Assembly (NCBI GenBank): GCA_036245525.1
Contig: BTPG01000001.1
Location: 181,638,671 to 181,702,670 of the forward strand
Reading direction: 5' to 3'
Source of the DNA: Semisulcospira habei
Taxonomy: Eukaryota; Mollusca; Gastropoda; Semisulcospiridae
DNA: 64,000 bases
Shown here: positions 36,787 through 64,000 of the stretch, in pieces
How positions within the stretch are numbered: position 1 is the stretch's first letter
How the letters are laid out: the number at the start of each line of letters is the position of its first letter
Notes under the pieces: generated by a model
The model's input: the letters and a program-made list of their open reading frames with translations, nothing else
Databases searched by the model: none
Told to the model about the DNA's origin: nothing
Translations under genes and position numbers: made by a program

Positions 36787-37404
36787 ATGGTGAACTTGTA
36801 TCCACAAATACCACCTGAGCAGCTTGAGCCTATTGAGCGTGATAAAACATTAAAGGCAGATTCATTCCGTTTAATGAATATTACAGAAGCGTTGAAGTAT
36901 TTGGAAGAAGAACAAGCAAAATACTCGAGGTGTAAACGCCGTTACAATACGGTTTTCAATTCTGTACACAACACATCAATGGCCATGGGGGTGGTTTCGG
37001 CCGGATTATCTGTAGGAGGTATAACTCTGTTTGCAACGGGGGTGGGAAGTGTCGTAGGAATTGCTGTTGAAGCTGTTGGCCTTGCCACAAGCCTGGCATG
37101 CTTTGGTATGGAAGCCCTTAACAAAAAATTTTATACTAAGTTGCAGAAGCATGAAGCATTAAGTACGCTCGCAGCAGCTAAGCTGACGAGTATGAAACTT
37201 ATTATTAGTAAATCTTTGGAAGATAATGAAATTGACGATAACGAATTTAAAAGAGTCCAGGATGATTTGGCCAACTATAAACAACAAAAGTCTGAAATAC
37301 AGAATAAGATGCGTAGTCAGGCTGTAAATGTTGAAGAGCTAAAGAAATCTTTTTTAGAACAAGGAAAAAAGATAGGCGTAGAAGAAACTATGAAAAAAGT
37401 TTGA
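36787..37404 (+). CDS. Polinton membrane-hairpin protein (zero-frame product)
   Basis: 205 codons. After an N-terminal helical region there is a double hydrophobic hairpin (about residues 60-105: 'MAMGVVSAGLSVGGITLFA', 'GIAVEAVGLATSLACFG'). A helical tail follows ('KLQKHEALSTLAAAKLTSMK', 'DNEIDDNEFKRVQDDLANYK'). This layout is very common next to Polinton-like genes in invertebrates, as I recall. The zero-frame stop TGA (37402-37404) is followed by a conserved minus-one-frame extension (37398-37526); see the findings. The 'TMKKV' end sits on an AAAAAA run. Confidence 0.7.
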   Translation: MVNLYPQIPPEQLEPIERDKTLKADSFRLMNITEALKYLEEEQAKYSRCKRRYNTVFNSVHNTSMAMGVVSAGLSVGGITLFATGVGSVVGIAVEAVGLATSLACFGMEALNKKFYTKLQKHEALSTLAAAKLTSMKLIISKSLEDNEIDDNEFKRVQDDLANYKQQKSEIQNKMRSQAVNVEELKKSFLEQGKKIGVEETMKKV

Positions 37405-37526
37405 GAACTTACAAGCAAGTAACGATAGGTTTTGGTAATCCATTATTTTTGTCATACACTTCGCAAAGAGATGTCATGCCTTTCACCCCTGCCTACCTAA
37501 CACCATCTGCCCCTCCACCAGACTAA
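37398..37526 (+). CDS. Minus-one-frame extension with PSAP motif (possible frameshift product)
   Basis: 42 codons then TAA, in frame -1 relative to the preceding gene, with no ATG of its own. It shares FGN, FLSY, SQRD, FTP and YLTPSAPPP with the equivalent region of copy 2 (61664-61792); length differences between the copies are whole codons. The PSAP tetrapeptide matches the Tsg101-binding late domain. The PPxY seen in copy 2 is cut short here (PPPD then stop). Expression could need a minus-one frameshift at the A6 run (37393-37398), or splicing. It is too short to stand out as an independent ORF. Confidence 0.5.
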   Translation, partial: SLRTYKQVTIGFGNPLFLSYTSQRDVMPFTPAYLTPSAPPPD

Positions 37527-38275: not shown

Positions 38276-38394
38276 ATTCAGCATGCTTGAATATTGTAGA
38301 CTCCAGTCCGCAGAAAACTTCACCGCATTTCAGTTGTATGACACGATATAGACGCGGCGACTGTGTACTTAGTCACGTTACTAAGTCCCTATGT

Positions 38395-46660: not shown

Positions 46661-46715
<55 letters not shown>

Positions 46716-48067: not shown

Positions 48068-48205
48068 ACTCATACAGTGACCAAAAAATCAGACACTCCA
48101 AAAACAAAACCAGAAGTCGCCACATTACCAGTAACACCCAAAGCCGTTGACCCATTTTATATGCAGTAAATAAAAATATTATTTTAATTTTTATTGCGTA
48201 AGAAA

Positions 48206-48436
48206 ATGAGCGACACAAAGAACATAATGAACCTTGTGTATCATTCTGCCGTAATCAGAGGATTAGCAGTAGCTTATTCTATGCTGGGAAAAAGTCTACT
48301 CAAAATGAGGTCTGTAGACCTCAGTAGATTGGATCTGGAAGACAGTGCTAAACTAATCACGATTGTTACAGCATCAATTGCGACAAAAGATTTTCTTGTC
48401 AAGCAGGGAATTATTCCCGAAAATGTTTCTATGTAA
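48206..48436 (+). CDS. Polinton 76-residue hydrophobic protein, copy 2
   Basis: Counterpart of 25196-25426, same length (MSDTKNIMNLVYHSAVIRG start). Substitutions are mostly conservative, suggesting selection. Function unknown. Confidence 0.65.
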   Translation: MSDTKNIMNLVYHSAVIRGLAVAYSMLGKSLLKMRSVDLSRLDLEDSAKLITIVTASIATKDFLVKQGIIPENVSM

Positions 48437-48447
48437 ATAAAAATAAT

Positions 48448-48888
48448 ATGGCGACTTTAGCAGTAATAATTGGAGGCGCGATGGTCAACGCCCTGGCATT
48501 TAGTGGGTCAAATTATCTCTTTTCAAAAGTAGGTAGAGAGGAATCTGCAGAAGAAATGAAACGTCACAATGAGGCATCTGAAAAACTTGCTCAAGCCCAG
48601 CAGGATTATGAAAAGAATAGAATTGAGAAACTTGATTTCATTAATGAAAAACTGAGGCTAGAAGGCCACGCACAGCATACGTTTTCAAATACAGACGAAG
48701 CAATCAGGGAATATTTTCTTGTCACGGGTGAAGACATGTCTATCCCAAAACCGAAACTAAGTGACTATTACAAACCGAGTACACAACAAAGAAACGGGGA
48801 GATAATCTTTGTTCTAGTGGGAATGTCATTTGTTTATTTTACTGGACTTTATATTGCTAGAAGAAATGAACCCCGGGGTAGAAAATAA
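48448..48888 (+). CDS. Polinton coiled-coil protein with two membrane segments, copy 2
   Basis: 146 codons, counterpart of 25436-25867 (MATLAVIIGGAMVNALAFSG start; 'DYEKNRIEKLDFINEKL' coiled coil; C-terminal membrane segment). It overlaps the integrase start by 23 nt. Intact. Confidence 0.65.
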   Translation: MATLAVIIGGAMVNALAFSGSNYLFSKVGREESAEEMKRHNEASEKLAQAQQDYEKNRIEKLDFINEKLRLEGHAQHTFSNTDEAIREYFLVTGEDMSIPKPKLSDYYKPSTQQRNGEIIFVLVGMSFVYFTGLYIARRNEPRGRK

Positions 48889-49843
48889 ACTATCAAAAAT
48901 ATATTACTCTCCATCAGGCTATTGGAAAGGAGCAACAGCTATTCAGAAATTACATGCCGCTGTGGGCGGAGATATATCACTCAATCAAGTCAAACAATGG
49001 TTACAGAGACAGGCAATTTGGCAGATATATCTTCCTGCTCCAAGAAAAATATCTAGACCCCATTTTGAAAACACTACCCCAAATGACACACATCAAATGG
49101 ACCTCCTGTTTTTACCCCATGACACAATAAGAAAGAAACGATACAAGTACGCTTTGACTGTCGTAGACATTGCTTCAAGGCATAAAGACGCTGAACCCAT
49201 ATCTGACAAAACAGCTACCACAGTTGCTACAGCATTAACAAAAATATATAGTAGAGGCCCTTTAAGATACCCCAGACTTGTGCAGGTTGATGACGGATCA
49301 GAATTCAAAGGTGCTGTTAATCAGTTATTTGCGAAGCATGGCGTAATAGTCAGACGAGGCATTCCAGGTGTACACAGATCACAGGCAATTGTAGAGAACT
49401 TTAACAAACAATTATCAGAGAGACTTTTCAGTTACCAGTATTCAAAGGAACTCATGCATGACATGCGTAACACAGAGTGGGTAAAGAGATTACCACATGT
49501 TATAAAAGCAATGAACAATGAAGGCCATCCTAAGCCTGCTGATGCTATTAAATTGAAAACAATTACAGAACCAAAAACAGGACCAACCCCAACCCCAGCA
49601 CCAGACACAAGTTTATTTACTAAACAGGTGAGATATTTATATCAACCAGGCGAGGCTGAGAACGACGACAGACGCAGGGCAACAGACCCCATCTGGTCAA
49701 CGTCTGTACACAATATAAAAAAAATAGTCCCCGGTCTTGACGCAACAATATATTACCTGTATGACCCTGCACCCCAGAGGGCATTTGTCAGAGAAGAATT
49801 ACAGATTATTCCACCAGACACCGTTACTCATTTCAGTAACTAA
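48866..49843 (+). CDS. Polinton integrase (RVE family), copy 2
   Basis: 325 codons from the ATG at 48866 (inside the end of the previous gene). DDE residues in 'NDTHQMDLLFL', 'VQVDDGSEFKGAV' and 'SQAIVENFNKQL' are all present. It is slightly longer than copy 1 because of a Pro-rich insertion 'TEPKTGPTPTPAPD' before the C-terminal domain. Intact. It ends inside the converging polymerase gene (45 nt overlap) exactly as in copy 1. Confidence 0.92.
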   Translation: MNPGVENKLSKIYYSPSGYWKGATAIQKLHAAVGGDISLNQVKQWLQRQAIWQIYLPAPRKISRPHFENTTPNDTHQMDLLFLPHDTIRKKRYKYALTVVDIASRHKDAEPISDKTATTVATALTKIYSRGPLRYPRLVQVDDGSEFKGAVNQLFAKHGVIVRRGIPGVHRSQAIVENFNKQLSERLFSYQYSKELMHDMRNTEWVKRLPHVIKAMNNEGHPKPADAIKLKTITEPKTGPTPTPAPDTSLFTKQVRYLYQPGEAENDDRRRATDPIWSTSVHNIKKIVPGLDATIYYLYDPAPQRAFVREELQIIPPDTVTHFSN

Positions 49844-52800
49844 CTCATCAACCAGTTCATCGGCTATGTCTTCAGATAACTTAAGCCTGTAATGTCCAGG
49901 TGCATAAGCCTTTTCCTTACTGAAAAACACTCGTTTCGTGTCTCCAACTGCAAGTGACTTTTTGTGTGTTTGAATCATTTCAAGATTATGTTTATTTGAT
50001 CTCAGTGACTTGTTTGGATAATCAGGCATTAATGCACCATCTAATTCTTGCTTGTAATGTTCATGTCGAATGTCTTTATTTTTTATTGCTGTTTTTTTTT
50101 ATTCCTTTGGCTTTCGACTGACTACCTTTCTGATGCAGTATAGAATACATTTTTGATCTCAGTCCAACGTACTCAACTATAGGCACACCATTCAGTTCAT
50201 CCTTAAACTTACCAGGCACTTTCTTGTTTTGTGTGCTAAACAGTGGATGATCTTTTGGGTAGTCAGACGTGTCGTACATGTGTAACTCTGTTTTCATGTC
50301 TTCATAAAAGTCTTCAGTACACACATCAATGATCATAGAGTCAGTGTCAGTGTATAGCAGACGACACTCAGGATATTTTGATTTGAAGTAATCATAATAA
50401 AATTCAAGCATTAGTAATTTTGACAACTCAAGAATTGCCATACCAATGAATACTGGCTTGTCCAGTTTCACAATCTTTTTTTTGAGTGACACTGCATACA
50501 ATGATGAATGAAACTCTTTGTACCCTGTGTACTGTGGCTTACCTGTAAGTTTAATTGCACCCGATTCAGTTGTGACAAGTCTCACATCTTTGCGGTGATG
50601 AGGATTTTCCATAGTCTTTCCAAAACAGGCATTGTTCATAAGCTTAAAGAAGTCTTTGTCAAATGCAGTGTTGCCGTCCCTGGCACGCAATGTTGTGTTC
50701 TTCATTATATAATCTTTCATGAAAGCACTCTGATCAAATTGAATTCCTCTGTGAACTTTCTTTAGTACTAACCCATGTCTGATGTAAAACTGCAGCAATC
50801 GATAGTGACAAACGTAATTGAATTTGTCATTCAGATTTTGCACAAGTTTGGTGTCTTCTTTTTTTCCTGTCATACTCATTTTCTCAACTGCCAACGGATA
50901 ATCATTGTGGTAATCATGTAGATGGTGTGGGTACTCCAGGTCGACTTCAAAGATCCAACCCTTCGCGTCGTTTCGGTCAAGATTCATAATATTGTTTGTT
51001 AACCCTGTTATGTCATACTGTGTCAAATCATACAGACAAAAGTTTTTCAAGGGCAATAACTCACACATCGCCCAGCCATAAAGGTTATTAGAGTCCAAGT
51101 ACGTAATGAATGACCTTGACCTTGAGGGGTCAAACCCCGGGCCGTCCAGATATTTGTTGTTGGCTCTAGCGTAATTATTTGCTGCAATACTAATCCCTCC
51201 CCTCAATCCACGTTCCACCATTTCACCCATCGTACGATCAGACAACAGGTCTATAAATATCTTACTGGATTTCAAAAATGCATCCCATGTCATGCCAGGA
51301 CTAGTTATGTAACAAGCAGGGTCAAGCTTGTAGTGTAACAAACCCTTTTCACGGTAACATACGTCTGCTAGCAAACAAACGTCAGCTTTCAAGTACTGGT
51401 CGTGGTAGTCACCAATTGTTTGACACCCTAACTTCCCCCACCATCAAGTGCGTGTTGGTATTCAGAGTCAGAAATGCCTTTTCCAGTTAGTGTGGAATAA
51501 AATTTGTCTTTTGGCGGCAGTCTCCTTTCTTCAAACACAACCCAGTGATCAATGTACTCATACGGATAGACACCTTTCTTAATCAAGTCTGGTTCAAAAT
51601 ATTTACTTGTTATTGGATACTCAGTCAGTCCTTCTGCCAAACTAGCAAGACCTAAAGACAAATGTTGCATGGAGTCATAAAATGCTAATTTGTCTAACCT
51701 AAAAGTCAAATATTTCTCAGTTGTCTGGGCAATACAACTAATGTTTTTGTAAGACTCATCTACAGCCTGCATGATAATGTGTGAATCATATCCTTTGAGA
51801 TTGTGAAAAAAGATTGGTAACTTATATGTCTTAGGATCTGTTTTTAATAACAAGTTACAATTGTTATGTGCAGCACCTCTGTAACGTCCAGTTATGTGAT
51901 CATGGTCACGAACTTTATCACCCTGGAGGGGTTGTTCACAAATCCAACACGTCTCAGCTGTATCAAATTTTAGTTTGTCTTCTTCTGTCATCACCAAAGG
52001 CATCTGACATGTTGTGAGATACTGTACTACCTGACTATACAGATGTCTCATTTCTGTTAAAAACAAACATGCTGCATTTTCACCTCTGTAGATAACAGGC
52101 TCTGAATGCTGTCCGTCTGACCTAACAATAATATATCCAAAAGAACACACCACTTGGTCACTCAACTTTACAGTCTTTGGTAATGACTCTGGAACAGGAC
52201 CTTCATATGGTACTACTAATGATTCAAAATCAGCATACACTACAAACGGCAGCTTTTGTTGATTCCCATAGTTCTTAAAATATACTTGACTACCAGGATC
52301 TGGATACTTAAGTACAGTCTGTATGTCATCAGCTGACCTACAATGTAAAACATGTTTATGTGCCACTGCAATAGAGGAGAATCTTTGTAAACATTTTTTA
52401 CACACTTCCTGTTTGCCATTATGTTTTGTTGTATGCCCATGAATTAGACGTGACATATTTCTGATAATTGTGTAGTGGAAGTTATCATTATCACCGGCAG
52501 GGCCTATTAGCAACATGTCAACATGCTTATCTTCTGACTGACCGTAGGTTGGAGCAAGTGGTGATACTCTAATGGGTTGTAACTTGTCAACAGACTCATT
52601 ATCCCACACATACACATTTACAGATATACCAGGATTTAGTTTTTCAAACAAGTCTATGTCTTCTATTTTAACAGGGAACTCAATGCCACTGAAGTTGAGT
52701 TTCATTTACAAATTTGATGTAGTTAGATACACGTTCAGGTTTTGACTTTACAAAGTGTAGTTTAGCAAGCACACACCACATGAAACAATAGTTGTCATTG

Positions 52801-53264
52801 TTCTGTATGTTAACAACAGCCTTTTTGTTTGCAACCTCTGTTGGCAGTGGCTTCCATGATTTACCTAAAATAGGATGATACCTTGACTGTTTTAGTTGTA
52901 GTTCATGTACATGTCCTTCGTGCCAACCAGACCCCTTCATTTTTGCACTGTCAATTGCCTGGAGGAAGTCTGGTAATAGTCTGTCTCTAAACACGTTCTC
53001 TAATTCCCTTCTTGTGTTAACTGTGTGTTGTCTTGTTGATATGTACGATACAATCACTTCACCGTCTACTCTAGTAAATTCTATTTTAGCAACAATCTGA
53101 ATCTTCACACTGCCTGTAAGAAGATTATCTTGTATGACAGAAAAAGATCTTTCTATTGATTCATAAACATTATTAGTATTAGATATAGGTAAGTCTGTTG
53201 TGTGAAACACGTTTCTTAAGCTTGATGAGCCTGATGAGCCAGGGTTTTGAACATTGTCCGTCAT
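49799..53264 (-). pseudogene. Polinton DNA polymerase B, copy 2, three frame breaks
   Basis: The minus strand starts at the ATG at 53264 (MTDNVQNPGSSG, preceded by AATAAAA). All exonuclease and polymerase motifs named for copy 1 are present ('VVYADFESL', 'NLKGYDSH', 'KADVCLLADV', 'TYLDSNNLYGWA', 'LMNNACFGKTM', 'YTDTDSM'). Breaks against copy 1: an extra base near 52699-52705, a missing base near 51431-51443, and an extra T in the T9 run at 50092-50100. There is also an in-frame loss of two codons just after ExoIII (near 51358). The C-terminus lacks a four-residue repeat present in copy 1. Non-functional as assembled. Confidence 0.9.
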
Positions 53265-53389
53265 TTTTATTTGTCGGACAAAATAATAAATGAAAAAAAA
53301 ATTACCGCTGACACACCATATGTAATACTGTATTATCTGTAGTTATGATAAACAAGTCAACTACTTCCCTGGTGTTTGTCCTGCAGGTG

Positions 53390-53725
53390 TTATATCACTT
53401 TATTCAATGTAACACTTTCAATGTAACAATGTAGTTTTCTTAATTGAACAAATATGTCTTCACACAGTACCTCAAACCAACGCAAGTGGCCACTGTTAGC
53501 ATTATAAACTTTAAAAGCATTTGTCTTAAGATCAACAGTCTCATAATCATAACGTGGTAATCCATCTGAATATTCCAAAGTAACATTATATGTCGTGTAT
53601 ATTCTTATTGTCGGTGTTGAGAGTTTAAAGCTGGGTCCAAACACACGTGATTTTAAGTCAGTAAAGTGCATAACATCTTTGAAGCATTCTGTAACATCAA
53701 ACACTTGGGTTTGTCCGTCTGTCAT
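53390..53725 (-). CDS. Polinton hypervariable small protein, copy 2
   Basis: 111 codons beginning MTDGQTQVFDVTECFKDV. It is the counterpart of 30323-30676 by position and by short shared islands, but overall very different. Intact. Function unknown. Confidence 0.6.
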   Translation of the reverse strand: MTDGQTQVFDVTECFKDVMHFTDLKSRVFGPSFKLSTPTIRIYTTYNVTLEYSDGLPRYDYETVDLKTNAFKVYNANSGHLRWFEVLCEDIFVQLRKLHCYIESVTLNKVI

Positions 53726-53751
53726 TTTTATTGGACAAACAAATGTATAAA

Positions 53752-54363
53752 TTAATTTACTAACCCATACCCTGTGGGCTGATCTGTCTTTAAAATAAGC
53801 TTTAGATGCTTAGTTGATTTCAGTTTATTTTTTACATCATCTCGTTCATGCTTATTTGGGATGACGTCGTTCTCTCTGAGACAGTCTTCAAAGCTGTCAC
53901 GATCCTTACAGTAAAACAAACAGATAAACTTTAACTGTTCTCGAAAATCTTTCAGTACAGCATTATATTTCTGAGTGAGAATCCATACACTTACATTTGC
54001 GTGTCTACCACTGAAGGCAAGTTCTGCTAGAGTGTTTCTCTTTTTGACAATGTCTTTCTCTGCAGAGCAGTCATCAACAATAAACAATGTTGACTGTCCT
54101 TCAAATTGCTTGTAAAAATATTGTAGGTAGTCGATTCAGTTTCTTTCTCAGGGTCGACTAAGTAATGTTATGTCAGTCCAAATGAATAAACGGTTGTGAT
54201 AAGCTTTGTTGTGTTTGATTGTAGGACAAAATATTACAATGTTTTCAAAGTGGTGTATGTATCTTGTTTGTAAAAGGTTAAGAACAAATTCAGTTTTACC
54301 ACACCCTGTGGCACCACAAAACAATCCACAGTGTGGGTCAAGTGTCATCAAGCTCCGGTTCAT
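53752..54363 (-). pseudogene. Polinton packaging-type ATPase, copy 2, local indels
   Basis: Counterpart of 30703-31314. Walker A 'GATGCGKTEF' and Walker B 'LFIVDDCSAEKD' are present. A cluster of small indels at 54131-54170 (two single-base gains and a two-base loss relative to copy 1) breaks the frame between the two motifs. Outside it the sequence is almost identical to copy 1, so a local sequencing problem is possible. Confidence 0.8.
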
Positions 54364-54382
54364 TTTAATACACAATATAATT

Positions 54383-55666
54383 TTAATATATGTGTCCACT
54401 CAGTCTACTGTCTTGTATATTGAGTTGTGCATCATAAATCAAATACAAATATATATTTATTGCTGCAGCAGTTTCAACCTTCTTTTGTATCTGAATTGTT
54501 ATTCCATCACTGCCGTTCTCAACAGTTCGACCTGACCCATGAAGGTAATCGTCGTCCGTACTACGAAGGTCTAGCCAAAGAGCATACTTATTTGTAAGGT
54601 ATTGACCAATTCTTACGTCATACAGATGTAAATCTTTACACACTATGTTTGCGGGTTTATCTCTAATCCTTCCACCGGCAAAAAACGTTGTGATCTCATC
54701 GTAGTGCTGATAAGGCAGCATTCCAGAAGCATACACTTGATTAGGGCGGCCTTCAATTGTGCAAGACAAATGTGTAATCTTAGGATTGTAGAATTTTTCT
54801 GAATCTCTTTTGTATGGACTCACCGGTTCAACAAACAACATAAGAATACCTTTCAGTGACCTGGCAGGTGTGTTCAAGTTTATATTCCACATTGGGTCAC
54901 TCTTGTCTTTGGGTATTAAACTATGTCTAATCACTCGGTCATAATAAATTGGAAGTCTTGACTGGTACTGATTTTGAATGAGTCTAGCTAGTTCAGTGTG
55001 TGTGACAATTTCATATTCCAAAGAAATGTTAGAGATCTTGTATGTTGCATCTGTGGCAGATGATTTTATAACTTTGGAGTAGTCATTGAAAGTTAGTTCA
55101 AAGCTCAGACGGTCATTCAGTGCCCCTTGATAATAAGGCAAGTGTGCTGTTAGGATTTCAAACTCAAGTGGAATGTAAAATCTGGTTCCATATGTTTCTG
55201 CTAATATAACGTCCTGGGCTGCTGACGTTGATTTATCTCCAGCATTGATTCGAAGTTTACCAACATTATCAGACTGTATGCCTTGGTAAATACGATCTTC
55301 TCGTTCTTCTCTTGTGAGCCAAAGGTCTTTGCAACAGTAGAATACATCGGAGTCATCAAGACTAAACACTTCCTGTCCTTCAAGTTTTACTTTAATAGTT
55401 CTAACAATTGCTCTGCCAAGATTGTCAACCAGTGTTCTGTTTACATCTGCGTCTGATGATAGTTCAATATTAAATGCTAGGCGTGCAGTGCCAGGAACAA
55501 TAACGTCACTGGGACCTAGGTTTGGAAACTTAACTGTAAGTGTTTGGTTCTGGTCTATGGTACTTGGATTGTTTGTGATGACGATTGATTATCTTATGCC
55601 CTTAACACCAAGAGGCTCACGTAGTTTTCTGTATGGGTCTAACTTTGATCCGTAAGACTGTGTCAT
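54383..55666 (-). pseudogene. Polinton capsid-like protein, copy 2, early stop
   Basis: Counterpart of 31334-32614. The frame is continuous apart from a TAA at 55589-55591 (CAA in copy 1), about 25 codons after the start at 55666. The central region that is frameshifted in copy 1 is open here ('YYQGALNDRLSFELTFND', 'LARLIQNQYQSRLPIYYD'). Between the two copies each part of the protein is represented. The capsid assignment carries the same caveats as in copy 1. Confidence 0.6.
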
Positions 55667-55706
55667 TTTTATTATGCACAATAAAAAATAATAAATTAAT
55701 AAAACA
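55667..55706. promoter_or_regulatory. Divergent intergenic region, putative bidirectional promoter, copy 2
   Basis: Base-for-base identical to 32615-32654 of copy 1. Confidence 0.6.
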
Positions 55707-56903
55707 ATGGCAGCGGGAGGATTTAATCATGAAGATTTTGAAATGGATGGCATGTATGATTTTGGTAATACAACAGATATGACAGATATGGCAGATATGA
55801 CTGGTACAAGAAATATTTACAGTTTACGTCATGAACTTTTAGAAACCAAAGTGAACTCATTTTATGATCATGTTGGTGGCCGCCCAGACAACGTAGATCC
55901 TAATCAGTTTGAACTTGATGGCAAGGGTCATTTATATTTAAATACTGTTGACAAAGGAAAAGTACTATTGACTAATAAAAAAGACCCTGGTAAGTTTAGG
56001 GCTTTAAGTACAATAAAAAATGAAGGCAGTGTTGGTGCCTTGCGTCAACTTGGTATTGGAGGCTCTCCTGTCACGCCTAGACTGGTTAGTGTGCTTCACG
56101 ACACACAAACAAAGTTACCAACAGGGCAACAAATTGAAATGGCACCAGTAACAAGCCTACCAGAAATAGCAAACACAGTGATACAAGAAACTTCATTTAC
56201 TGAAGGACAAATAAATGACGCTATGAAAACAATAGATGACCCACCTTTGTCAATGCAGGAGATTATAGGGTTGGATAAATCATTGCAGACAATAAGAGGT
56301 GAGATGGTAAACAATGTTGCCAAACTGGGTGAGCTTGATAAACACATAGAACGTGAAAAAGATAAACTGGCTACCGCAGACAATGGGAATCTTGACACAG
56401 AAATGAAAGAAAGAATCCAACACAGATTAAATGATTTGCAGATAGAAAGATCAGGAAGGTTAGAAACAATTAGTATTGGAAGACAAAAACTGAAATCACA
56501 GGTCAACAGAATTAGGGAAACTATTCAGAAAATACTTCACGAAGACACTACTCTGGCTGAGAGACTAAAAACACTTTTCAGAGAACAGGGTATCACAATT
56601 GCAAGTTTAATTACTGCTCTTGGGTTTATTATCAGTACTGTTGTGTTGGCTGTCTCTGGTAGTGGTGGGGGTCCAACCCCGGCACCGCCAGGTCCACCGG
56701 CCCCAACTGACCCAAAAGATTTACAGTCATGGGTAAAGAAACAGTTGTCTCATATTTCAGATCTGCTTAAAAAATTGGCTCTGAAAGCAATAGATGCTTT
56801 GCCTGGCATAATAGGCACAGTTGTCAGTTGGCTTATTACTACAGCAGCAAAGGTAGTTGGGTTTATGGCAGAATATGTGTGGGTCTTTTTGGTTACAGTA
56901 TGA
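55707..56903 (+). CDS. Polinton coiled-coil and membrane-active protein, copy 2, C-terminally truncated
   Basis: 398 codons, counterpart of 32655-33887. The N-terminus is acidic with a DMTDMADMT-like repeat. The coiled coil and hydrophobic helices are conserved. A GGA to TGA change at 56901-56903 truncates the final membrane helix. The following 42 nt still encode the copy 1-like end to 'KQIKK', so the stop is recent. Confidence 0.65.
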   Translation: MAAGGFNHEDFEMDGMYDFGNTTDMTDMADMTGTRNIYSLRHELLETKVNSFYDHVGGRPDNVDPNQFELDGKGHLYLNTVDKGKVLLTNKKDPGKFRALSTIKNEGSVGALRQLGIGGSPVTPRLVSVLHDTQTKLPTGQQIEMAPVTSLPEIANTVIQETSFTEGQINDAMKTIDDPPLSMQEIIGLDKSLQTIRGEMVNNVAKLGELDKHIEREKDKLATADNGNLDTEMKERIQHRLNDLQIERSGRLETISIGRQKLKSQVNRIRETIQKILHEDTTLAERLKTLFREQGITIASLITALGFIISTVVLAVSGSGGGPTPAPPGPPAPTDPKDLQSWVKKQLSHISDLLKKLALKAIDALPGIIGTVVSWLITTAAKVVGFMAEYVWVFLVTV

Positions 56904-56945
56904 GGGTTGATGGTGGGTTATTTAATGAAACAGATAAAGAAGTAA

Positions 56946-57630
56946 TATACCTAACCCCGTTAGGCCTATTACCACTGCAGTTATCTCTCTGACTCCTGTG
57001 TGTCAGGGGTTGTTTCCCTGGTACTGGGTTGTATGGGTGCCGGAGTGGGGCCGGGGCCGGGAGGCGCGGGGGTGTTACCGTCTGTAATAAGTTGTAAATG
57101 ACTGTGCCTGAGTTGTTCGTGCCCCCAAGTTTACCTGCTTGCGATTGAGTCCTAATTTCGACCGACACCTGCAACACACTGTTTCAGTTATAGTAATTAG
57201 TTGTTGTCCCCATTTAGGCGTTAGAGGTCAGATGGTGACGAGTATAAACCCGAGGCCAGCTACGGAGTCAACTGTTGATCTCGCATATCTGAGAACGTCT
57301 TGGATACGCGTTGTATGCTTGATGGAGATCGACTGTTGAATTAAGTTGAATTCTTCCAGGTGGGCTAGAAATCGTTTTTGTGCTTCAAGGTGTAGCCACT
57401 TCCATTCAAAATATTTGATTGTGATAGTGCTGAGTGTGCTCGCTAGGATTACACTCAGACATATGTTCTGTATATGACTCATTACGTCAGCGCTTCACTC
57501 GACGACTCCTGCTTCGAGTAAGCCCGTCAGTTTGTCTAAGGATAGCTCTGGTTCCAGGGCTGATTCGACTGTTGTTCTGGTTATTTTTGATTTTAAGTCT
57601 ACTAGTGTAACTGAATATATGTGATTCGAA
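56946..57630 (-). pseudogene. Error-rich duplicate of the 3' part of the anchored structural gene
   Basis: 56946-57100 corresponds to the Pro/Thr stalk and anchor end of the gene at 33864-35147. 57100-57560 is a noisy second version of 58195-58680, with indels every 10-20 bases ('KYFEWKW', 'LEAQKRFLAHLEE', 'DVLRYARSTVD' still readable). This looks like uncorrected long-read sequence rather than biological divergence. Confidence 0.65.
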
Positions 57631-58190
57631 GTGCTGCTAGCTGATGCTTGATGTAATCGGTGATATGTTTCCTAGCTTTGTCTTAGTTGTTCTATATGTT
57701 ATTTGTAGTGTTTTCATATCTTGGCTTTGTCGTGTCTTATTACCTAAGCTGCTCATTCTGTTAGTACGCTGTTTGTTGTGTGGGTTATCTTTTGACGTAG
57801 TGGGTTCGGCTCATTTCCTGTTTGATGTTCTTGTCGAAGATTAACTTCATGTGAGTGCGTTAGTTGTTTGGTTCGTGTTGTTGTTGATCGTTATTTTATT
57901 TTTTTTTATCTGGTTTGGATGTCTCGTTGGTGTGTTTGTTAGTTGTATGTTTAGCAGGTCATTTTGTTTATGATCTAATTGTCTATGTTTGGGTCTATCC
58001 CATCCGTTTGTATTGTCTTAAGCTTGATTTATTGCGTTCTGTTTCTTCGACTGTTGATGTATTCGATCTCTGTCGATGTTTTGGAACCTTAACTGTTGAG
58101 TTACATTGTGAGTATATAGCATGTGGCGTATCAAAGGATTGTTGTTTGTTATTGTCGTTTCGTCTTTTATTTGCGGGTTGTCCTGTTTGT
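57631..58190. other. Unassignable GT-rich sequence within Polinton copy 2
   Basis: No ORF of merit, no similarity to copy 1 and no repeat structure. Base composition (T/G rich) differs from the surroundings. It joins abruptly at 58190 to good copy 1-like sequence. Probably part of the same artefact. Confidence 0.5.
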
Positions 58191-58191
58191 G

Positions 58192-59292
58192 TTACCGTCT
58201 GTAATAATTTAATTGACTGTACATGTTGTGTTGTGGCCCCAAGTTTACAGATTGATTGAGTCCTAATTTCTGACCAACACCTGCAACAACTATTTCATTA
58301 TTATAATTTGTTATTGTCCCCATTTGGAGTTGAAGATCAGATGGTAACATGTATAACCCGATGCCAACTACAAAGTCAACTTTTGATCTCGCATATCTGA
58401 GAACGTCTTGGTAGCGTTGTATGCTTGATGGGAGATCGACTGTTGAATTAATTGAATCTTCCAGGTTTGCGAGAAATTGTTTTTGTGCTTCAAATTTGCC
58501 ACTTCCATTCAAAATATTTGATTTTGTTAGTGATTGTGCTCCTAGTATACACCAGACATATGTTCTGATAGACTCATTGACGCGCTCGACTCCTGCTTGA
58601 GTAAACCCGTCAGTTTTATCTAAAATAAATGTGGTCCAGGCGTTAGACTGTTTCTGCTCTATTGATCCTATCCAGACTTGTGATTTTGATGAGAATGAAG
58701 TGTAACCAGGGTAGTAATCTTGAGGGTATTGTCTGTGACTCAAAGCGTAATACAATGTACCAATGCCGTGGTGATCATCAAGTTTTTGTGTGAAGTCATA
58801 CCGGGGGCTTATGTTAAATTCATTACAAATGTGTTCAAACGCTTTCATATCCATAGGGTTATTAAACCTGTTGAAACTGGATTCAGTTGGTAGTGGGGTA
58901 TGCAGTTCTGACAGTATACGTCTAAGCTGGTAATAAACATGAAAACGATAGACAGACTTAATTAGTTTGTTTGAGTGATTCAAGTGGTCTGTAAATGAAA
59001 CACCACAGCCTGTAGTTGAGCATAGTATAGCAAAGTTAATTTGGTTTTGAAACATCTGTAGTGGACTTGAAGACCACTTTCTTGCAGTTGAGTCGTCTGT
59101 TATTGGAGGGTTTAGGTAATGATCAAATGGATTTGGTACTTTGACTTGGAATAGATCTTGTTCAGACACAGCAATATCAAGCTGGTTTAGTTGAATTATT
59201 TTCTGTTCATAAGTTGGTGCAACATTATATTTGGCATTCACATTAAATTGAAATGCATTCGTTGTGGTAATGGTTGGTGATTTAAATTCCAT
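58192..59292 (-). pseudogene. Polinton structural candidate with membrane anchor, copy 2, 3' disrupted
   Basis: The N-terminal ~345 codons match 33864-35147 (MEFKSPTITTTNAFQF start; 'RKWSSSPLQMFQNQ', 'YPGYTSFSSKSQVW'). The reading frame is lost after NLGP, where the suspicious insert begins. The stalk and anchor are displaced to 56946-57100. If the insert is artefactual the gene may be intact. Confidence 0.65.
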
Positions 59293-59316
59293 CCTTTTTT
59301 ATATGAGATAATAAAA

Positions 59317-60048
59317 ATGTTTATCACATTAACAAATCTTGACACAAGCAAACCAGTGTGGTTAACTAATGGGATTGATAATCGTGATGGTAGCAAGGCT
59401 GTAGCTATCCATGAAATGTTCTACACAGTAAAATGGTTTAATGTTACAAATGATACAGATTATTATATAGATGGATCTTTTATTGCTAGTTTAAAGAGAG
59501 TTAATGTTTTACGAGCTGGGTATTATGACTTTTGTACTTTAGCTGAATGGCTACAAAATGAATTTAAAATTAAAGCAACTTTAAATCCGGCTAACTTACT
59601 TGTTACATTAGATTTTCCAAAAGATACTGAGTATTCATTATCATTAAGTCTTATAAAATTACTTGGGTTTATGGGTAATGTAACTTCTTTTCCAGATGAA
59701 GATTGGACAAAATGGTTAAGTCCAGACAGGCAACAACTACTAAAACCAAAAAAAGAAAAAATAATTGGAAGATATCCTGTTCATTTGTCAGTACACACAG
59801 TGCTAAATGTTTATTTGAAACAACTAAACACAACTGAAAATATTCACAATGGAAAGCCTTCAACTTTGTTGAGATGCTTACCAACTGGAACTGCTCCGTA
59901 TTGTGAAAGTGTGGTTGCTAGATTTCCTAATTTACAGTTTAAGAAATTAGGTTCTAGTTTCTTTGAGTCACTGTGTATATCTGTAACTAATCAAGATGAC
60001 AAACCAGTTGTTATGCATGATTTTAGTGTAGTGTTAGAAGTTAAATAA
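59317..60048 (+). CDS. Polinton penton-like (minor capsid) candidate, copy 2
   Basis: 243 codons, intact version of the frameshifted 35176-35867. N-terminal part: 'GYYDFCTLAEWLQNEFK', 'LSLSLIKLLGFMG'. C-terminal beta domain: 'HLSVHTVLNVYLKQL', 'STLLRCLPTGTAPYCESVV', 'PVVMHDFSVVLEVK'. The resemblance to Polinton/virophage minor capsid proteins rests on overall pattern and context. Start preceded by ATAATAAAA. Confidence 0.6.
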   Translation: MFITLTNLDTSKPVWLTNGIDNRDGSKAVAIHEMFYTVKWFNVTNDTDYYIDGSFIASLKRVNVLRAGYYDFCTLAEWLQNEFKIKATLNPANLLVTLDFPKDTEYSLSLSLIKLLGFMGNVTSFPDEDWTKWLSPDRQQLLKPKKEKIIGRYPVHLSVHTVLNVYLKQLNTTENIHNGKPSTLLRCLPTGTAPYCESVVARFPNLQFKKLGSSFFESLCISVTNQDDKPVVMHDFSVVLEVK

Positions 60049-60071
60049 TTTTATTTTTGTTTATAAAAAAA

Positions 60072-60947
60072 ATGAGTGGTGGTCCAAAGCGAACAATCAT
60101 ACCAACTGCGTGTCCGGTAACAGAGTTAAAAGATTTGGCTGATGTACAGGATTTTGAGAAGGAGGGAGAAATCGGGGAGGTGTATGGTTTTGAACTTGAT
60201 TCAACTGGCATGTACAAGCGGAAAGTAATTGTTGACATGAAAGACGGTGAAAAACAGATTCCTAAACTTGGTCAGCTACGTGATGTTACTGTACCTACTC
60301 CGCCTGTAAATAATGCGCCTTACAACTTAATACATGTGGGAAATAAGTGGGTTGTTTCACCTGTGCCGGCACCAGCACCCGTAATTGACTGGGACATAAA
60401 GTTGGAATTTATTAGTCCTTATGTATACACTGATGATGAAGGTGCCTTAGTGTTTAGGAAAGTTGTTAATTCTGGGCCGCTGATTGTAAGCCTTGTTCCA
60501 AGTTTTGCCCCAGACAACAATAGCAGAGATAAACTGAAAGTTGAAAATTATGAGAGACGGCGGTATCTTCTTACAACTAGAAAGGGTAGATCAGATACTT
60601 CTGTTGTGTTTATGCCAGCAAGCTTAGTCGTGGCTAGAGAAGCGACAATAGTATTTGAAATTATCATGAAATCTGTAACTTCTGCAAAAGAGGCAAATAT
60701 TGCACAGGGAATAAAACTTACATGGGATGAAACAGTATCAGAATCAACAAAGGTTTTTATTGCTATTAGAAAAAATGTAGATGTTTTTGAAGTTTCGAGC
60801 AGTGTTCCAGCTGTCAAGATATTAGTCGACAAAACAACTTTTGTTCGTCTAAGTTACATAAACCTTGAACACATTGATCTTGTTGCATTTTATTATGCAA
60901 GTAAATTGTATACTTTTGACGAGTTGCAAAATGTAATTGCTGATTAA
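60072..60947 (+). CDS. Polinton beta-rich protein, copy 2
   Basis: 291 codons, counterpart of 35888-36766 with about 90% identity. Same Pro-rich hinge ('VSPVPAPAPVIDWD') and beta-rich C-terminal part. Intact; unknown function. Confidence 0.65.
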   Translation: MSGGPKRTIIPTACPVTELKDLADVQDFEKEGEIGEVYGFELDSTGMYKRKVIVDMKDGEKQIPKLGQLRDVTVPTPPVNNAPYNLIHVGNKWVVSPVPAPAPVIDWDIKLEFISPYVYTDDEGALVFRKVVNSGPLIVSLVPSFAPDNNSRDKLKVENYERRRYLLTTRKGRSDTSVVFMPASLVVAREATIVFEIIMKSVTSAKEANIAQGIKLTWDETVSESTKVFIAIRKNVDVFEVSSSVPAVKILVDKTTFVRLSYINLEHIDLVAFYYASKLYTFDELQNVIAD

Positions 60948-60974
60948 ATAAAAAAAATATTTGTCAATAAAAAA

Positions 60975-61670
60975 ATGGTAAACTTCTATCCACAACTACC
61001 GACGCTTGAGCCGACTGAATCAATTGCGACGACTAAAACAACGCTTGCGCCTGATCCGCATGCGACAGCTGTGCCAATTGCATCAGATAAAACATTACAG
61101 GCAGACGCATTTCGTTTAATGAATATTACAGAAGCAATTAAATATTTGGAAAGTGAAGAGGCGAGGTACTGCAGATGTAAGAGACGGTATCAGACCGTTT
61201 TTAATTCTGTTCAAAACACTTCTATGGCTATTGGTGCAGTTTCAGCTGGATGTTCTGTAGGAGGTATTGTTCTGTTTGCCACGGGAATTGGAAGTTTGTC
61301 TGGAATAGCAGTTGAGGGTGTTAGCGTTGCTACATGCCTGGCTTGCTTTGGTTTGGAGGCCTTGAACAAGAGGTTTCACACGAAATTACAGAAACATGAA
61401 GCATTGAGTACACTTGCTGGTGCAAAGCTGAGCAGTATGAAACTTATTATCAGTAAGGCATTGAATGATAATTTTATTGATGACGAAGAATTTAAGCAAG
61501 TCCAGGATGATTTAAATAATTACAAGAAACAGAAGTCTGAAATACAAAATAAAATGCGTAGTCAATCTCCTGTGAATGTTGAAGAACTGAAGGCTAGTTT
61601 TTTAGAGATGGGGAAACAGATCGGTGTTCAGGAAACCACAGAAAAACTACACAATCTTTTAAACAAATAA
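60975..61670 (+). CDS. Polinton membrane-hairpin protein, copy 2 (zero-frame product)
   Basis: 231 codons. The N-terminus has a ~25-residue Thr/Pro-rich insertion absent from copy 1 ('TESIATTKTTLAPDPHA'). The double hydrophobic hairpin (about residues 88-133) and helical tail are conserved. The gene ends CTT-TTA-AAC-AAA-TAA: the heptamer T-TTA-AAC (61658-61664) in the correct phase is a canonical minus-one slippery site, one codon before the stop. Confidence 0.7.
   Translation: MVNFYPQLPTLEPTESIATTKTTLAPDPHATAVPIASDKTLQADAFRLMNITEAIKYLESEEARYCRCKRRYQTVFNSVQNTSMAIGAVSAGCSVGGIVLFATGIGSLSGIAVEGVSVATCLACFGLEALNKRFHTKLQKHEALSTLAGAKLSSMKLIISKALNDNFIDDEEFKQVQDDLNNYKKQKSEIQNKMRSQSPVNVEELKASFLEMGKQIGVQETTEKLHNLLNK
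61658..61664 (+). promoter_or_regulatory. Candidate minus-one ribosomal frameshift site (UUUAAAC)
   Basis: X-XXY-YYZ heptamer in phase with the upstream frame. The zero-frame stop follows after one codon. Slippage leads into the open 42-codon extension 61664-61789. Confidence 0.55.
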
Positions 61671-61792
61671 AAATCAGATTTGGTAATCAATCAATATTTT
61701 TGTCATATGCTTCGCAAAGAGATGACACATCATTTACACCACTTGTGCCTGATTATTTAACCCCATCTGCACCACCACCAGAGTACTACTGA
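61664..61792 (+). CDS. Minus-one-frame extension with PSAP and PPxY motifs
   Basis: 42 codons from the slippery site to TGA (61790-61792), without its own ATG. Shared with copy 1: FGN, FLSY.SQRD, FTP and YLTPSAPPP. It ends PSAPPPEYY, overlapping a PSAP (Tsg101/ESCRT-I) and a PPEY (Nedd4-type WW-domain) late-domain motif. Such motifs serve budding or entry in enveloped viruses, and PPxY is used by adenovirus protein VI. A small separately spliced exon is an alternative explanation. Confidence 0.55.
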   Translation, partial: QIKIRFGNQSIFLSYASQRDDTSFTPLVPDYLTPSAPPPEYY

Positions 61793-62029
61793 GAAAAAAA
61801 AAGTTTTTTTATTGTCCTTGTATCTTGTCAAATCTGACCGAGTAAGTTGTGACTTAAGTCAAGTTGTTGTAAGAACTTATAAGAACTTACAGTAAGTAAT
61901 TAATAAGTTTTTATGATAAGTAATTAATAAGTTCTTATGATAAGTAACTTAAAGGTTACCTCTGCAGGTTCCTAAAAGTTAGTTGTAACTTGTTAATAAG
62001 TATAAAATCACTTAGTCAGGTAAATAATT
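61793..62029. other. Conserved non-coding region near the right end, copy 2
   Basis: Repeated 'taagaacttataagaactta' and 'taattaataagttctta' words, partly shared with 37527-37750 of copy 1. No gene. Confidence 0.45.
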
Positions 62030-62293
62030 AGGTGTTCATAGAGACAATAGTTATAGAGATAGATACTAAGAGATTTAAAAGATAATTAAATCAATAATGA
62101 CGCATCGGTCATGCTCGTCACTTTTTAAAATCAAAGGGTTGATTCGGAATAACGGGGGTGGGGGGGGGGGGGGTGGGGGTGGGTGGGGGGGTGTAATGGG
62201 GTCAAAAATTTTAATATTAAAAATGACGTAATTTAATGACCGATGCGTCATTATTGAATTCATTGTCTTTTAAATCTCTTAGTATCTATCTCT
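62030..62293. repeat. Right terminal repeat of copy 2, containing a palindrome
   Basis: The reverse complement begins AGAGATAGATACTAAGAG. The palindrome arms ('aagagatttaaaagat' / 'tcttttaaatctctt') differ from those of the left end. A G-rich tract (62154-62193) interrupts it. The inner text 'ggtgttcatagagacaatag' matches the left end. Confidence 0.85.
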
Positions 62294-62408
62294 TACATTC
62301 CACATCGCTAGTTTCTAAGTCTCGGCGCCTGCGGGTTATGTGTTTAACTGAGTTGTGGATGTAGACCGCTACACCTGTCTCATCCCAGACTGACGGATCT
62401 CTCCTAAG

Positions 62409-62511
<103 letters not shown>

Positions 62512-62931
62512 ACGTCATATTTAAAGTATTGCGTCAATGTCTGCATGGTGACGGAGTTGCTTCTTTTACGTCACCATGTCTGACTGTCTGACTTTCTCCA
62601 GAAGTCAAGTTTTTGTTTTTTGTTTTACTTTTTCTGCAAAAAATTAATTTTAACTGAAGAAGTTGAAAGGATACAATACTGGCTAACGAACTCATCCAAT
62701 GTCTTTCTCCAAACTAGCTATATTCAAAATTGTATGTAAATATGACTAAAATTACAGACTCTAATCTGGGTCAACCGACTTTCTATAAACGGTTTTTTAT
62801 GTCTTCAATGAGACATCCAGTTACAATATGCTCGGAGGGTCTCTTAGCCACCCCTTGAATAAAGTCTATCGCCAAGTATTAAGCTTGTGCTTACAGCAAT
62901 ATCTGAGATTCTCAGTGGTGTCTACATACAA

Positions 62932-63034
<103 letters not shown>

Positions 63035-63378
63035 TACGGCCTTTCGCGCCAAGTGCACGTTTAGCAGCGAGGTTAGCGTAACTAGAGATGACGTAAGTTT
63101 TATCTTGTTACTTCAGTTGTCAGAGGTTTAGGCCTGCACGTTTGACATCATGGACATCATGGACATGCTATTAAATTCGCCCCACCGCGACACATCCTAA
63201 AATGTCCCTTCTATAAATAGAAGGGACTTAAAAACAACCCAAAAAGCAACTGTAAGCAATAGGTCCTCAGGCCGACGTCAGCCGTACTACGACCTCGCGC
63301 GCAAGACTTGAGGCCTGAGGACCTTTTGCTTACACTGAACGTTTGTCCAGTCAATCACTCATTGCCCCCGCGCAATAC

Positions 63379-63648
63379 CTTAGAGATTAAGAGGGCCAGG
63401 AGGACAACGATGACGACAGCGTTTAAGTAGCACACGTAAATCGTCGCCCCCAGCCCTCCTGTGAAGGCGTATGACCCGAACAGAGCGGCCATGACGAAAA
63501 CGCAGAACTCCTCTGAGACACCCACGAACACGCCCTGTAGAACGTGTGTGGACACGGTCAGCAGAATGACGAAAATGACCAGGTTTAGGATTAGAGCGAA
63601 GCAGCAGAACACTGCGTGAGTCACGGTGCCGAAGCGTGCGTAGATGGC
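63379..63648 (-). CDS. SLC5/SSS-family transporter (DUR3-like), internal exon
   Basis: A 270 nt minus-strand exon (90 codons, phase 0). The acceptor is TTTACAG (CAG at 63649-63651) and the donor is GTATTG. The translation starts AIYARFGTVTHAVFCCFALI, and two to three membrane helices follow ('NLVIFVILLTVSTHVLQG', 'YAFTGGLGATIYVCYLNAVV'). The R.GT..H..FC.FAL and TGGL.AT blocks are typical of sodium/solute symporters, closest in my judgement to the urea-transporter DUR3-like group. The next exon downstream (lower coordinates) was not found. Confidence 0.65.
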
Positions 63649-63825
63649 CTGTAAAAAGAGAGCAAAGACCGATTGGCCCGCTTTTTGTTGAACTGATGAA
63701 TCCACGAAAAGTCCTTGGAAGTGTTTGTTTGTTTGTTTGTTTTTTCTTAACCTAGTTTTGATATAAAGAATAGCCTCTTTTGTACCAGTATATGATACAT
63801 GTTTGTAACACAACTGTGGACTGAC

Positions 63826-63942
63826 CTGCAGGAAGGTTTTTGCACCTGGGGCCCGTGTTTTGAAGTGGACCGTCAGCATGGGGTACAGACATAAGCTAAT
63901 AACCGCTGCCACAGAGTACCAGTAGCCTCCCGCCAAGCCATA
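63826..63942 (-). CDS. SLC5/SSS-family transporter (DUR3-like), preceding exon
   Basis: A 117 nt exon (39 codons, phase 0) with acceptor TTGCAG and donor GTCAGT. The translation starts YGLAGGYWYSVAAVISLCLY and ends APGAKTFLQ, joining to the next exon as TFLQ-AIYARFG, the expected symporter order (G.a...F.e....RFG). The gene continues 5' beyond 64000. Confidence 0.65.
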
Positions 63943-64000
63943 CTGCAACAGCACAAAAAGTATTAAGAGCGAAATCAATGCTTGTTAAACCTTTATTGAC

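What the first reader, a model, noticed from the sequence alone, without database searches (positions are those of the whole stretch)
61640..61792. Canonical UUUAAAC slippery site leading into a PSAP/PPxY tail in Polinton copy 2
The membrane-hairpin gene ends CTT TTA AAC AAA TAA. The heptamer T TTA AAC is in the exact phase used for minus-one frameshifting (as in coronaviruses). Slipping there bypasses the stop and opens 42 more codons ending PSAPPPEYY, with overlapping Tsg101 (PSAP) and Nedd4 (PPEY) late-domain motifs. The same frame relation and peptide exist in copy 1. A frameshift-controlled ESCRT/Nedd4-recruiting tail on a membrane protein would be a new feature for Polinton-type elements and would suggest membrane-associated exit or entry.
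Basis: partly seen in the sequence, partly recalled or inferred. Interest (0 to 1): 0.92.

Follow-up and report, generated by a model that had tools for sequence, protein, structure and literature searches.

The report
Frameshifted late-domain tail in Polintons
A virus-like jumping element in what looks like an animal genome seems to make ribosomes slip one base near the end of a membrane-protein gene, adding a conserved tail with motifs that usually recruit the cell's membrane-cutting and ubiquitin machinery.

Summary
T TTA AAC (61658-61664) occurs in 49 of 119 loci with a near-canonical gene end, 48 of them one family; copy 1 lacks it. A second in-phase heptamer, T TTT TTA (copy 2 61598-61604; copy 1 37350-37356), is in both copies and in 128 of 134 fetched loci.

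From there to the gene's stop the minus-one frame has 0 stops in 1127 codons, against 1154 in 9704 upstream. Codons whose T-ending synonym would make a minus-one stop end in T in 0 of 175 cases, against 702 of 1448 upstream. Representative tails show purifying selection (pN/pS 0.37).

Best explanation: minus-one ribosomal frameshifting at U UUU UUA, as in alphavirus 6K/TF, adds a PSAP/PPxY tail to a minor isoform of a hydrophobic-hairpin protein. No consistent stimulatory RNA structure was found and no product was seen. Splicing is disfavoured: no conserved donor of the needed phase in the gene, only very poor ones in the gene before it. Tsg101/Nedd4 recruitment is inferred from motifs only.

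The parts
60975..61670 (+). Copy 2: hydrophobic-hairpin protein gene, zero frame, 231 aa
   Evidence: hydrophobic segments at residues 84-102 and 109-127; relatives P0003-P0005 at 57-61% identity; no Pfam family above its cut-off
61598..61604 (+). Copy 2 site A: T TTT TTA in phase X XXY YYZ, the most likely minus-one slip site
   Evidence: exact in 128 of 134 loci; 29 of 31 representatives
61598..61789 (+). Copy 2 minus-one open frame from site A to the tail end (64 codons), stop TGA 61790-61792
   Evidence: TAG at 61595-61597 closes the minus-one frame immediately upstream
61658..61664 (+). Copy 2 site B: T TTA AAC, the heptamer named in the finding; nearly confined to the copy-2 family
   Evidence: 49 of 119 loci, 48 of them with the copy-2-type end HNLLNK
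61671..61789 (+). Copy 2: part of the minus-one tail beyond the zero-frame stop, ending PSAPPPEYY (PSAP, PPEY)
   Evidence: conservation
36787..37404 (+). Copy 1: the same gene, 205 aa; its TGA 37402-37404 is shared by 4 of 30 family copies, the window copy included; 26 read another codon there
37350..37356 (+). Copy 1 site A: T TTT TTA in phase
37350..37523 (+). Copy 1 minus-one open frame to the tail end PSAPPPD, stop TAA 37524-37526; PSAP present, PPxY absent
60984..60998 (+). Copy 2: N-terminal codons F-Y-P-Q-L, a YPxL-type motif near the start of the hairpin protein
   Evidence: M..YP in frame in 109 of 114 loci examined

Best explanation
Most ribosomes read the hairpin gene to its normal stop. 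A minority slip back one base at U UUU UUA about 23 codons before that stop, read through a roughly 20-codon linker whose residues are largely free but must not contain stops, and add a conserved 30-40-residue tail that usually ends PSAPPP[ED]YY. The minor isoform then displays Tsg101-type (PSAP) and Nedd4-type (PPxY) motifs on a membrane-inserting protein. It would be used either for ESCRT-assisted release of particles or for Nedd4-dependent trafficking after entry, as with adenovirus protein VI.

Shown by sequence: minus-one coding of the tail, entry into that frame at or within about five codons of site A, conservation of the heptamer and motifs. Inferred: that the shift is ribosomal, its efficiency, membrane insertion, the partners and the role.
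For: Site A is exact in 128 of 134 loci and is the only heptamer column shared by nearly all 31 representatives (29 of 31). Minus-one stops: 0 of 1127 codons from A to the zero-frame stop versus 1154 of 9704 upstream, in 49 distinct sequences; the plus-one control has 152 of 1127 and 640 of 9753. Stop-able codons: 0 of 10 columns use T there versus 48 of 71 upstream, hypergeometric P about 5e-5; 0 of 7 versus 43 of 55, or 35 of 44 with stricter coverage, P about 1e-4; longest T-free run upstream 2-3 columns. A minus-one stop lies 1-6 codons upstream of A in 133 of 134 loci, so the frame can be entered only at A or in the few codons before it. The tail motif is in the minus-one frame and open from A in 115 of 134 loci, in an open zero frame in none. 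Tail pN/pS 0.37, column bootstrap 0.23-0.60 (31 representatives). Both PSAP and PPxY in 93 of 134 loci, mutated copies included. No conserved GT donor of the needed phase in the gene (31 representatives); in the gene before it the best scores -5.4 bits (36 sequences of two families). The same heptamer drives a minus-one tail on the alphavirus 6K membrane protein, and in the Semliki Forest complex no compact 3' RNA structure was found, with one possible exception (PMC2569925, abstract and section 9).
Against: No stimulatory RNA structure: RNAalifold energy 0.0 for 60, 90 and 130 nt after A in 31 representatives. Of nine single stretches folded, eight gave z between -0.30 and +1.76 and one, 64 nt of copy 1, gave -2.23. 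Residues of the linker in the minus-one frame are not conserved (pN/pS 1.01 over 28 representatives; first 12 codons 1.26, last 9 0.79). Exact codon conservation at site A is suggestive, not decisive: 3 of 6 other Phe columns and 2 of 13 other Leu columns are equally fixed. A 28-column minus-one stop-free run also occurs in the hydrophobic region, though only 0-2 columns there could form a stop. 19 of 134 loci have lost the motif or its frame. No RNA, ribosome or protein data. Copies come from one genome, are not independent, and were sampled by likeness to the queries.
Confidence: 0.68

Rival explanations
1. One reading: the shift happens at T TTA AAC, three codons before the stop.
For: The heptamer is in phase in copy 2 and in 49 of 119 loci with a near-canonical end. 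It could add to the shift in that family; one locus of another family, L102, has it too.
Against: Absent in copy 1 and in 70 of the 119 loci, which read TACAAGC, TATAAGC, TTTAAGC, GTTAGGC and similar, mostly with the tail kept. Stop avoidance in the minus-one frame begins some 20 codons upstream, which this model does not predict.
Confidence: 0.07
2. Splicing: an upstream exon is joined to an acceptor at TTTTTTAG, or further on, and the tail is read without any frameshift.
For: TTTTTTAG can serve as a 3' splice site; the G after the heptamer is kept in 133 of 134 loci. Under this model too the minus-one frame would have to stay open from that point.
Against: None of the 13 conserved GT columns in the gene is in the required phase (31 representatives). 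Conserved upstream-gene donors in that phase score -5.4 bits or worse (36 sequences of two families). The acceptor scores -2.5 in both window copies, against 5.7 and 4.9 for the best in each region; the one acceptor-like site near the tail that scores well (3.6, copy 1 at 37521) lies inside the tail's proline codons and could not supply the tail. At the Phe codon's third base, where C would suit an acceptor equally well, T is kept in 78 of 78 haplotypes. Intact vertebrate Mavericks were described with intronless ORFs (PMC8097293, passages).
Confidence: 0.12
3. Transcriptional slippage: RNA polymerase adds one U in the T6 run, so the same tail is read from a changed mRNA.
For: The T6 run coincides with site A and would give the same protein.
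Against: Six bases is a short run for polymerase slippage (general knowledge, not tested here). The model does not need the phase or the final A of the heptamer.
Confidence: 0.08
4. Relic: the tail is a former zero-frame C-terminus cut off by an old frameshift and no longer expressed.
For: 19 of 134 loci have lost the motif or its frame, for example L008, L031, L079, L091, L094 and L112.
Against: Purifying selection on the tail, stop avoidance in the overlap, the same frame relation in 115 of 134 loci from several families, and no homologue seen with the tail in the zero frame (14 proteins, several truncated).
Confidence: 0.03

Closest known systems
Alphavirus 6K/TF (TransFrame protein)
   Same: U UUU UUA heptamer inside a small hydrophobic membrane-protein gene; minus-one shift gives a shared N-terminal part with a new C-terminal tail; the Semliki Forest complex lacks a compact 3' structure, with one possible exception (PMC2569925 abstract and section 9; PMC12197650 passages).
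   Different: Alphaviruses are RNA viruses and the gene lies in a polyprotein. No homology was tested or claimed. The tail here carries PSAP and PPxY motifs; efficiency here is unknown.
Adenovirus protein VI (inner capsid protein with PPxY)
   Same: An internal capsid protein of a DNA virus with a PPxY motif that recruits Nedd4 ligases (PMC2841620, abstract); named as a canonical membrane-active capsid core protein in PMC11071296 (passages).
   Different: In protein VI the motif is encoded within the protein. Here it needs a frame change and sits beside PSAP. Sequence relationship was not tested.
Predicted minus-one frameshifts near the 3' end of adintovirus Penton genes
   Same: A related class of elements; a frameshift giving an alternative C-terminus of a putative structural gene (PMC11071296, section 16).
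   Different: There the gene is Penton and the evidence is a KnotInFrame prediction. Here it is a hairpin gene (perhaps the 'Macc' class of that paper) and the evidence is stop avoidance and selection over many copies.
Late domains of enveloped viruses (PT/SAP, PPxY, YPXnL)
   Same: The motif types; abstracts in the listing describe PTAP, PPxY and YPDL-like L-domains and their partners.
   Different: The cases named in those abstracts are mostly Gag or matrix proteins of enveloped viruses, not a frameshift tail of a Polinton.

Membership tests
Polinton/Maverick element | Retrovirus-like (rve) integrase | tested here: met
   PF00665 in 48830-49843 (1.6e-10) and 25842-26807 (7.3e-11)
Polinton/Maverick element | A32-type packaging ATPase | tested here: met
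   PF04665 Pox_A32 9.9e-15 in 30703-31350, copy 1; not found in the copy-2 ORFs scanned, not all of which were scanned
Polinton/Maverick element | Protein-primed DNA polymerase B | tested here: inconclusive
   No Pfam polymerase hit in the large minus-strand ORFs tried; Endonuclease_7 hits instead
Polinton/Maverick element | Terminal inverted repeats | tested here: inconclusive
   No inverted repeat of 60 nt or more with a 14-nt exact seed in 23000-39500 or 46000-64000; shorter ones not tested
Polinton/Maverick element | Double jelly-roll major capsid protein | tested here: inconclusive
Programmed minus-one frameshift cassette | X XXY YYZ heptamer in phase, conserved | tested here: met
   T TTT TTA in 128 of 134 loci, 29 of 31 representatives
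Programmed minus-one frameshift cassette | Overlapping minus-one ORF beginning at the site and under coding constraint | tested here: met
   the linker's residues themselves are not conserved
Programmed minus-one frameshift cassette | Downstream stimulatory RNA structure | tested here: not met
   (pseudoknots not modelled); not obligatory, as the Semliki Forest complex shows (PMC2569925 section 9)
Programmed minus-one frameshift cassette | Frameshift product observed | not testable with these tools
   Needs reporter, ribosome profiling or mass spectrometry
Viral late domain | PT/SAP and PPxY motifs conserved in the tail | tested here: met
   Unfiltered: both motifs in 93 of 134 loci, PSAP only 19, PPxY only 5, neither 17. 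Of 106 tails chosen for P[ST]A[PL]: PSAP 103, PPxY 90 (the PSAP count there is biased by the choice)
Viral late domain | Binding to Tsg101 or Nedd4-type ligases and effect on release | not testable with these tools
   No binding or release data
Adenovirus VI-like membrane-active capsid core protein (Macc) | Holin-like hydrophobic region in a capsid-internal protein | tested here: inconclusive
   Two hydrophobic Gly/Ala-rich segments in P0001; capsid location and fold unknown

The most novel reading that the evidence does not exclude
An animal DNA element of the Polinton type uses RNA-virus-style minus-one frameshifting at U UUU UUA, without a 3' RNA structure, to put a three-way late-domain array (YPx[LI] near the N-terminus, PSAP and PPxY in the shifted tail) on a minor isoform of its membrane-penetrating protein. 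Particles of a nominally non-enveloped, integrating DNA virus would then leave cells, or traffic after entry, through ESCRT/Nedd4.
Probability: 0.4. Interest if true: 0.87.

Novelty: new variant of a known kind. Interest (0 to 1): 0.74.

Why it matters
Polinton virions have not been observed: the abstract of PMC8097293, as listed, says so for Mavericks. A conserved, selectively maintained ESCRT/Nedd4-type tail would be sequence evidence that these elements spend part of their life as particles meeting cell membranes, and it points to one testable protein and pathway. It would also add a recoded gene in integrating eukaryotic DNA elements, with a large set of natural variants for studying structure-poor frameshift sites.

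Tried and rejected
Site B as the general slip site: rejected. An acceptor just before the tail (ATCAG in copy 2, GATAG in copy 1): rejected, because the AG is not at the same phase in the two families and minus-one conservation (KQ[VIL]xI) begins upstream of it. Reinitiation at a minus-one ATG: neither window copy has one between the last minus-one stop and the tail; copy 1 has one inside the tail; not tested in all copies. Reading copy 1's TGA first as damage and then as private to it (notes): corrected; it is shared by 4 of 30 family copies fetched.

Searches that led nowhere: viral contigs with P0001, A1, P0010 and P0008 and genome contigs with P0011 found no relatives; the copy-2 minus-one frame as a protein query found none; PDB searches gave no match of E below 0.02; PHROGs gave only weak hits. 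Structure prediction was not obtained.

Rows dropped before counts: one search used 91 of 100 loci (canonical end), then 63 haplotypes, then 28 representatives; one search used 78 full-length haplotypes, then 31 representatives; one search used 106 of 134 tails (those with P[ST]A[PL], under 60 aa and a near-canonical gene end), so tail lengths there are whole codons by selection; the unselected frame count is (115 of 134). The 134 loci include three places fetched twice (L081/L120, L084/L119, L096/L118), so 131 distinct places, and include the two window copies (L001, L056). One search's 104 'full-length' loci were selected by the YP motif itself; the unbiased count is.

Full report
WHAT WAS CLAIMED AND WHAT IS THERE. 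The window lies in a 1.98-Gb genome, evidently an animal's (inference; no name was given). It holds two Polinton-type elements: rve integrases in both and a Pox_A32-type ATPase in copy 1. A polymerase, a capsid protein and long terminal inverted repeats were not confirmed. At the right end of each element lies a gene for a protein with hydrophobic, Gly/Ala-rich segments: 36787-37404 in copy 1 and 60975-61670 in copy 2. The finding describes the end of copy 2 correctly: CTT TTA AAC AAA TAA, and a minus-one frame that runs on to PSAPPPEYY before TGA at 61790. Copy 1 has the same frame relation but no T TTA AAC, and its tail stops at PSAPPPD, so PPxY is missing there.

A SECOND HEPTAMER. Both copies carry T TTT TTA in the exact X XXY YYZ phase further upstream: 37350-37356 and 61598-61604, the latter 20 codons before site B. 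In copy 2 a minus-one TAG stands directly before it. The minus-one frame is open from there to the end of the tail in both copies.

COPIES FROM THE SAME GENOME. I fetched 134 loci, 131 distinct places; they were picked by likeness to the queries, not at random. Site A is exactly TTTTTTA in 128 of 134; the six exceptions each differ. At site B, 49 of the 119 loci with a near-canonical gene end have TTTAAAC: 48 with the copy-2-type end HNLLNK, and L102 of another family. In the first 100 loci, 91 with the canonical end, the readings were TTTAAAC 47, TACAAGC 18, TATAAGC 8, TTTAAGC 7, GTTAGGC 5, TTTAGGC 3 and three singletons. In a codon alignment of 31 representatives at least 3% apart, genes hold on average 2.6 in-phase slippery heptamers. 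Only site A's column has one in nearly all (29 of 31); site B's column has one in 15 of 31. The window's copy 1 ends six codons early: its TGA is shared by 4 of 30 family copies fetched, itself included, while 21 read CGA or CAA and 5 TAC or TAT there.

THE MINUS-ONE FRAME IS PROTECTED FROM SITE A ONWARD. In 49 distinct sequences minus-one stops number 1154 in 9704 codons upstream of A and 0 in 1127 from A to the zero-frame stop; the plus-one frame has 640 in 9753 and 152 in 1127. A sharper test asks, at codons followed by AA, AG or GA, whether a T-ending synonym (which would create a minus-one stop) is used. Upstream it is, in 702 of 1448 cases and 48 of 71 columns; from A on, in 0 of 175 cases and 0 of 10 columns (hypergeometric P about 5e-5, or about 1e-4 when only well-covered columns count). 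The longest upstream run of such columns without T is 2-3. A plain run-length test is less clear: a 28-column minus-one stop-free run also exists in the hydrophobic region, but only 0-2 columns there could form a stop. In 133 of 134 loci a minus-one stop lies 1 to 6 codons upstream of A. Translation must therefore enter the minus-one frame at A or in the few codons before it. This speaks against site B as the general entry point.

THE TAIL IS PROTEIN-CODING. Among 31 representative tails, pS is 0.375 and pN 0.140, ratio 0.37 (column bootstrap 0.23-0.60); an earlier set of 31 haplotypes, 30 of the copy-2 family, gave 0.52. The tail motif lies in the minus-one frame, open from A, in 115 of 134 loci, in another or a closed frame in 9, in no frame in 10, and in an open zero frame in none. 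Among 106 tails chosen for P[ST]A[PL], length varies from 30 to 40 codons; being chosen for the motif in frame, they differ by whole codons by selection. Tails as different as KINCSLNLSYSSQ... and KIRFGNQSIFLSYASQ... both end PSAPPPEYY; 76 of the 106 end PSAPPP[ED]YY. Unfiltered, 93 of 134 loci have both PSAP and PPxY, 19 PSAP only, 5 PPxY only and 17 neither. The linker between A and the zero-frame stop is not conserved as minus-one protein (pN/pS 1.01, 28 representatives), while the zero frame there is (0.31). The linker is constrained to stay open, not to keep its residues.

RIVALS TO RIBOSOMAL FRAMESHIFTING. Splicing: TTTTTTAG could be an acceptor, but with an approximate matrix it scores -2.5 bits in both copies, against 5.7 and 4.9 for the best in each region; the one well-scoring acceptor-like site near the tail (3.6, 37521 in copy 1) lies within the tail itself. 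Thirteen GT columns are conserved in the gene and none is in the phase that would lead into the minus-one frame. In the gene before it the best conserved donor of that phase scores -5.4 (36 sequences of two families). A remote leader exon is not excluded. Intact vertebrate Mavericks are described with intronless ORFs (PMC8097293, passages). Polymerase slippage on T6 would give the same protein and cannot be told apart by sequence. Against frameshifting stands the lack of a 3' structure: RNAalifold found none in 31 representatives; of nine single stretches, eight gave z between -0.30 and +1.76 and one, 64 nt of copy 1, -2.23. Pseudoknots were not modelled. Firth et al. report U UUU UUA frameshifting in alphaviruses, found no compact 3' structure in the Semliki Forest complex (with one possible exception) though the first 14 nt downstream matter, and saw U UUC UUA fall below 0.5% in a Sindbis insert (PMC2569925 section 9). 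Here the 14 nt after site A are strongly purine-rich (at least 92% purine at 11 of 14 positions), an observation I cannot interpret further.

WHAT THE TAIL MAY DO. PT/SAP and PPxY are late-domain motifs for Tsg101 and Nedd4-type ligases (abstracts). [quoted passage not shown] The hairpin protein also starts with a motif like the ALIX-binding YPXnL type: M..YP in frame in 109 of 114 loci examined, followed by YPQI (60), YPIL (33), YPQL (14), YPML (1) or YPIP (1); of the other five, three show YP without ATG, one has it in another frame and one lacks it. Isoleucine in place of leucine in the commonest form weakens the match. YP is present in 13 of 16 proteins of alignment A2; the other three lack the N-terminus. 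Four distant relatives (P0011, P0012, P0014, P0015) carry PTAP right after it. Three types of late-domain look-alike on one protein are suggestive, but no binding has been tested. Exit by ESCRT-assisted release and Nedd4-dependent entry traffic remain equally open.

KNOWN OR NEW. The mechanism resembles alphavirus 6K/TF in heptamer, membrane protein and tail, but no kinship is claimed. A preprint predicted minus-one frameshifts near the 3' end of adintovirus Penton genes (PMC11071296, section 16). Searches of the held library found no paper joining Polinton with 'late domain' (0). They found two papers for Polinton with ESCRT, not opened, whose titles are on other subjects, and two for Polinton with 'ribosomal frameshift', one being that preprint and the other not opened. 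A wider search held 9 papers and listed 7, none on this topic by title and none opened. I rate it a new variant of a known kind. Tail presence outside this genome is untested, and that is the largest gap.

Noticed in passing
P0011, P0012, P0014, P0015 (distant homologues): N-terminus reads YP[RK]LPTAPP: a PTAP motif next to the YPxL-type motif, as if late-domain function sat at the other end of the protein in that lineage.
   Followed up: partly
window 61605-61618 and the same 14 nt in 134 loci: The 14 bases after site A are nearly all purines across families.
   Followed up: no
window 61790-61812: A run of A followed by G and a run of T stands directly after the tail stop; similar runs follow the tail in the 15 aligned copies shown. 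Perhaps a transcript-end signal.
   Followed up: no
window 27442-30210 (-) and 51428-52705 (-): Large minus-strand ORFs match Endonuclease_7 (1.9e-4, just below the cut-off, and 4.3e-5, just above), while no polymerase B match was found.
   Followed up: partly
L116, L125, L133: Three loci have an altered A-run just after site A that shifts the zero frame and puts the tail out of frame; possibly a shared damaged lineage.
   Followed up: no
G000, copies of the copy-1 family: 34 of 150 scored places encode a protein with the same top score as copy 1's (100% identity), suggesting recent amplification.
   Followed up: no
window 62157-62192 and 62411-62509: A long G-rich run and a long GA-dinucleotide repeat lie beyond the right-hand gene of copy 2.
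   Followed up: no
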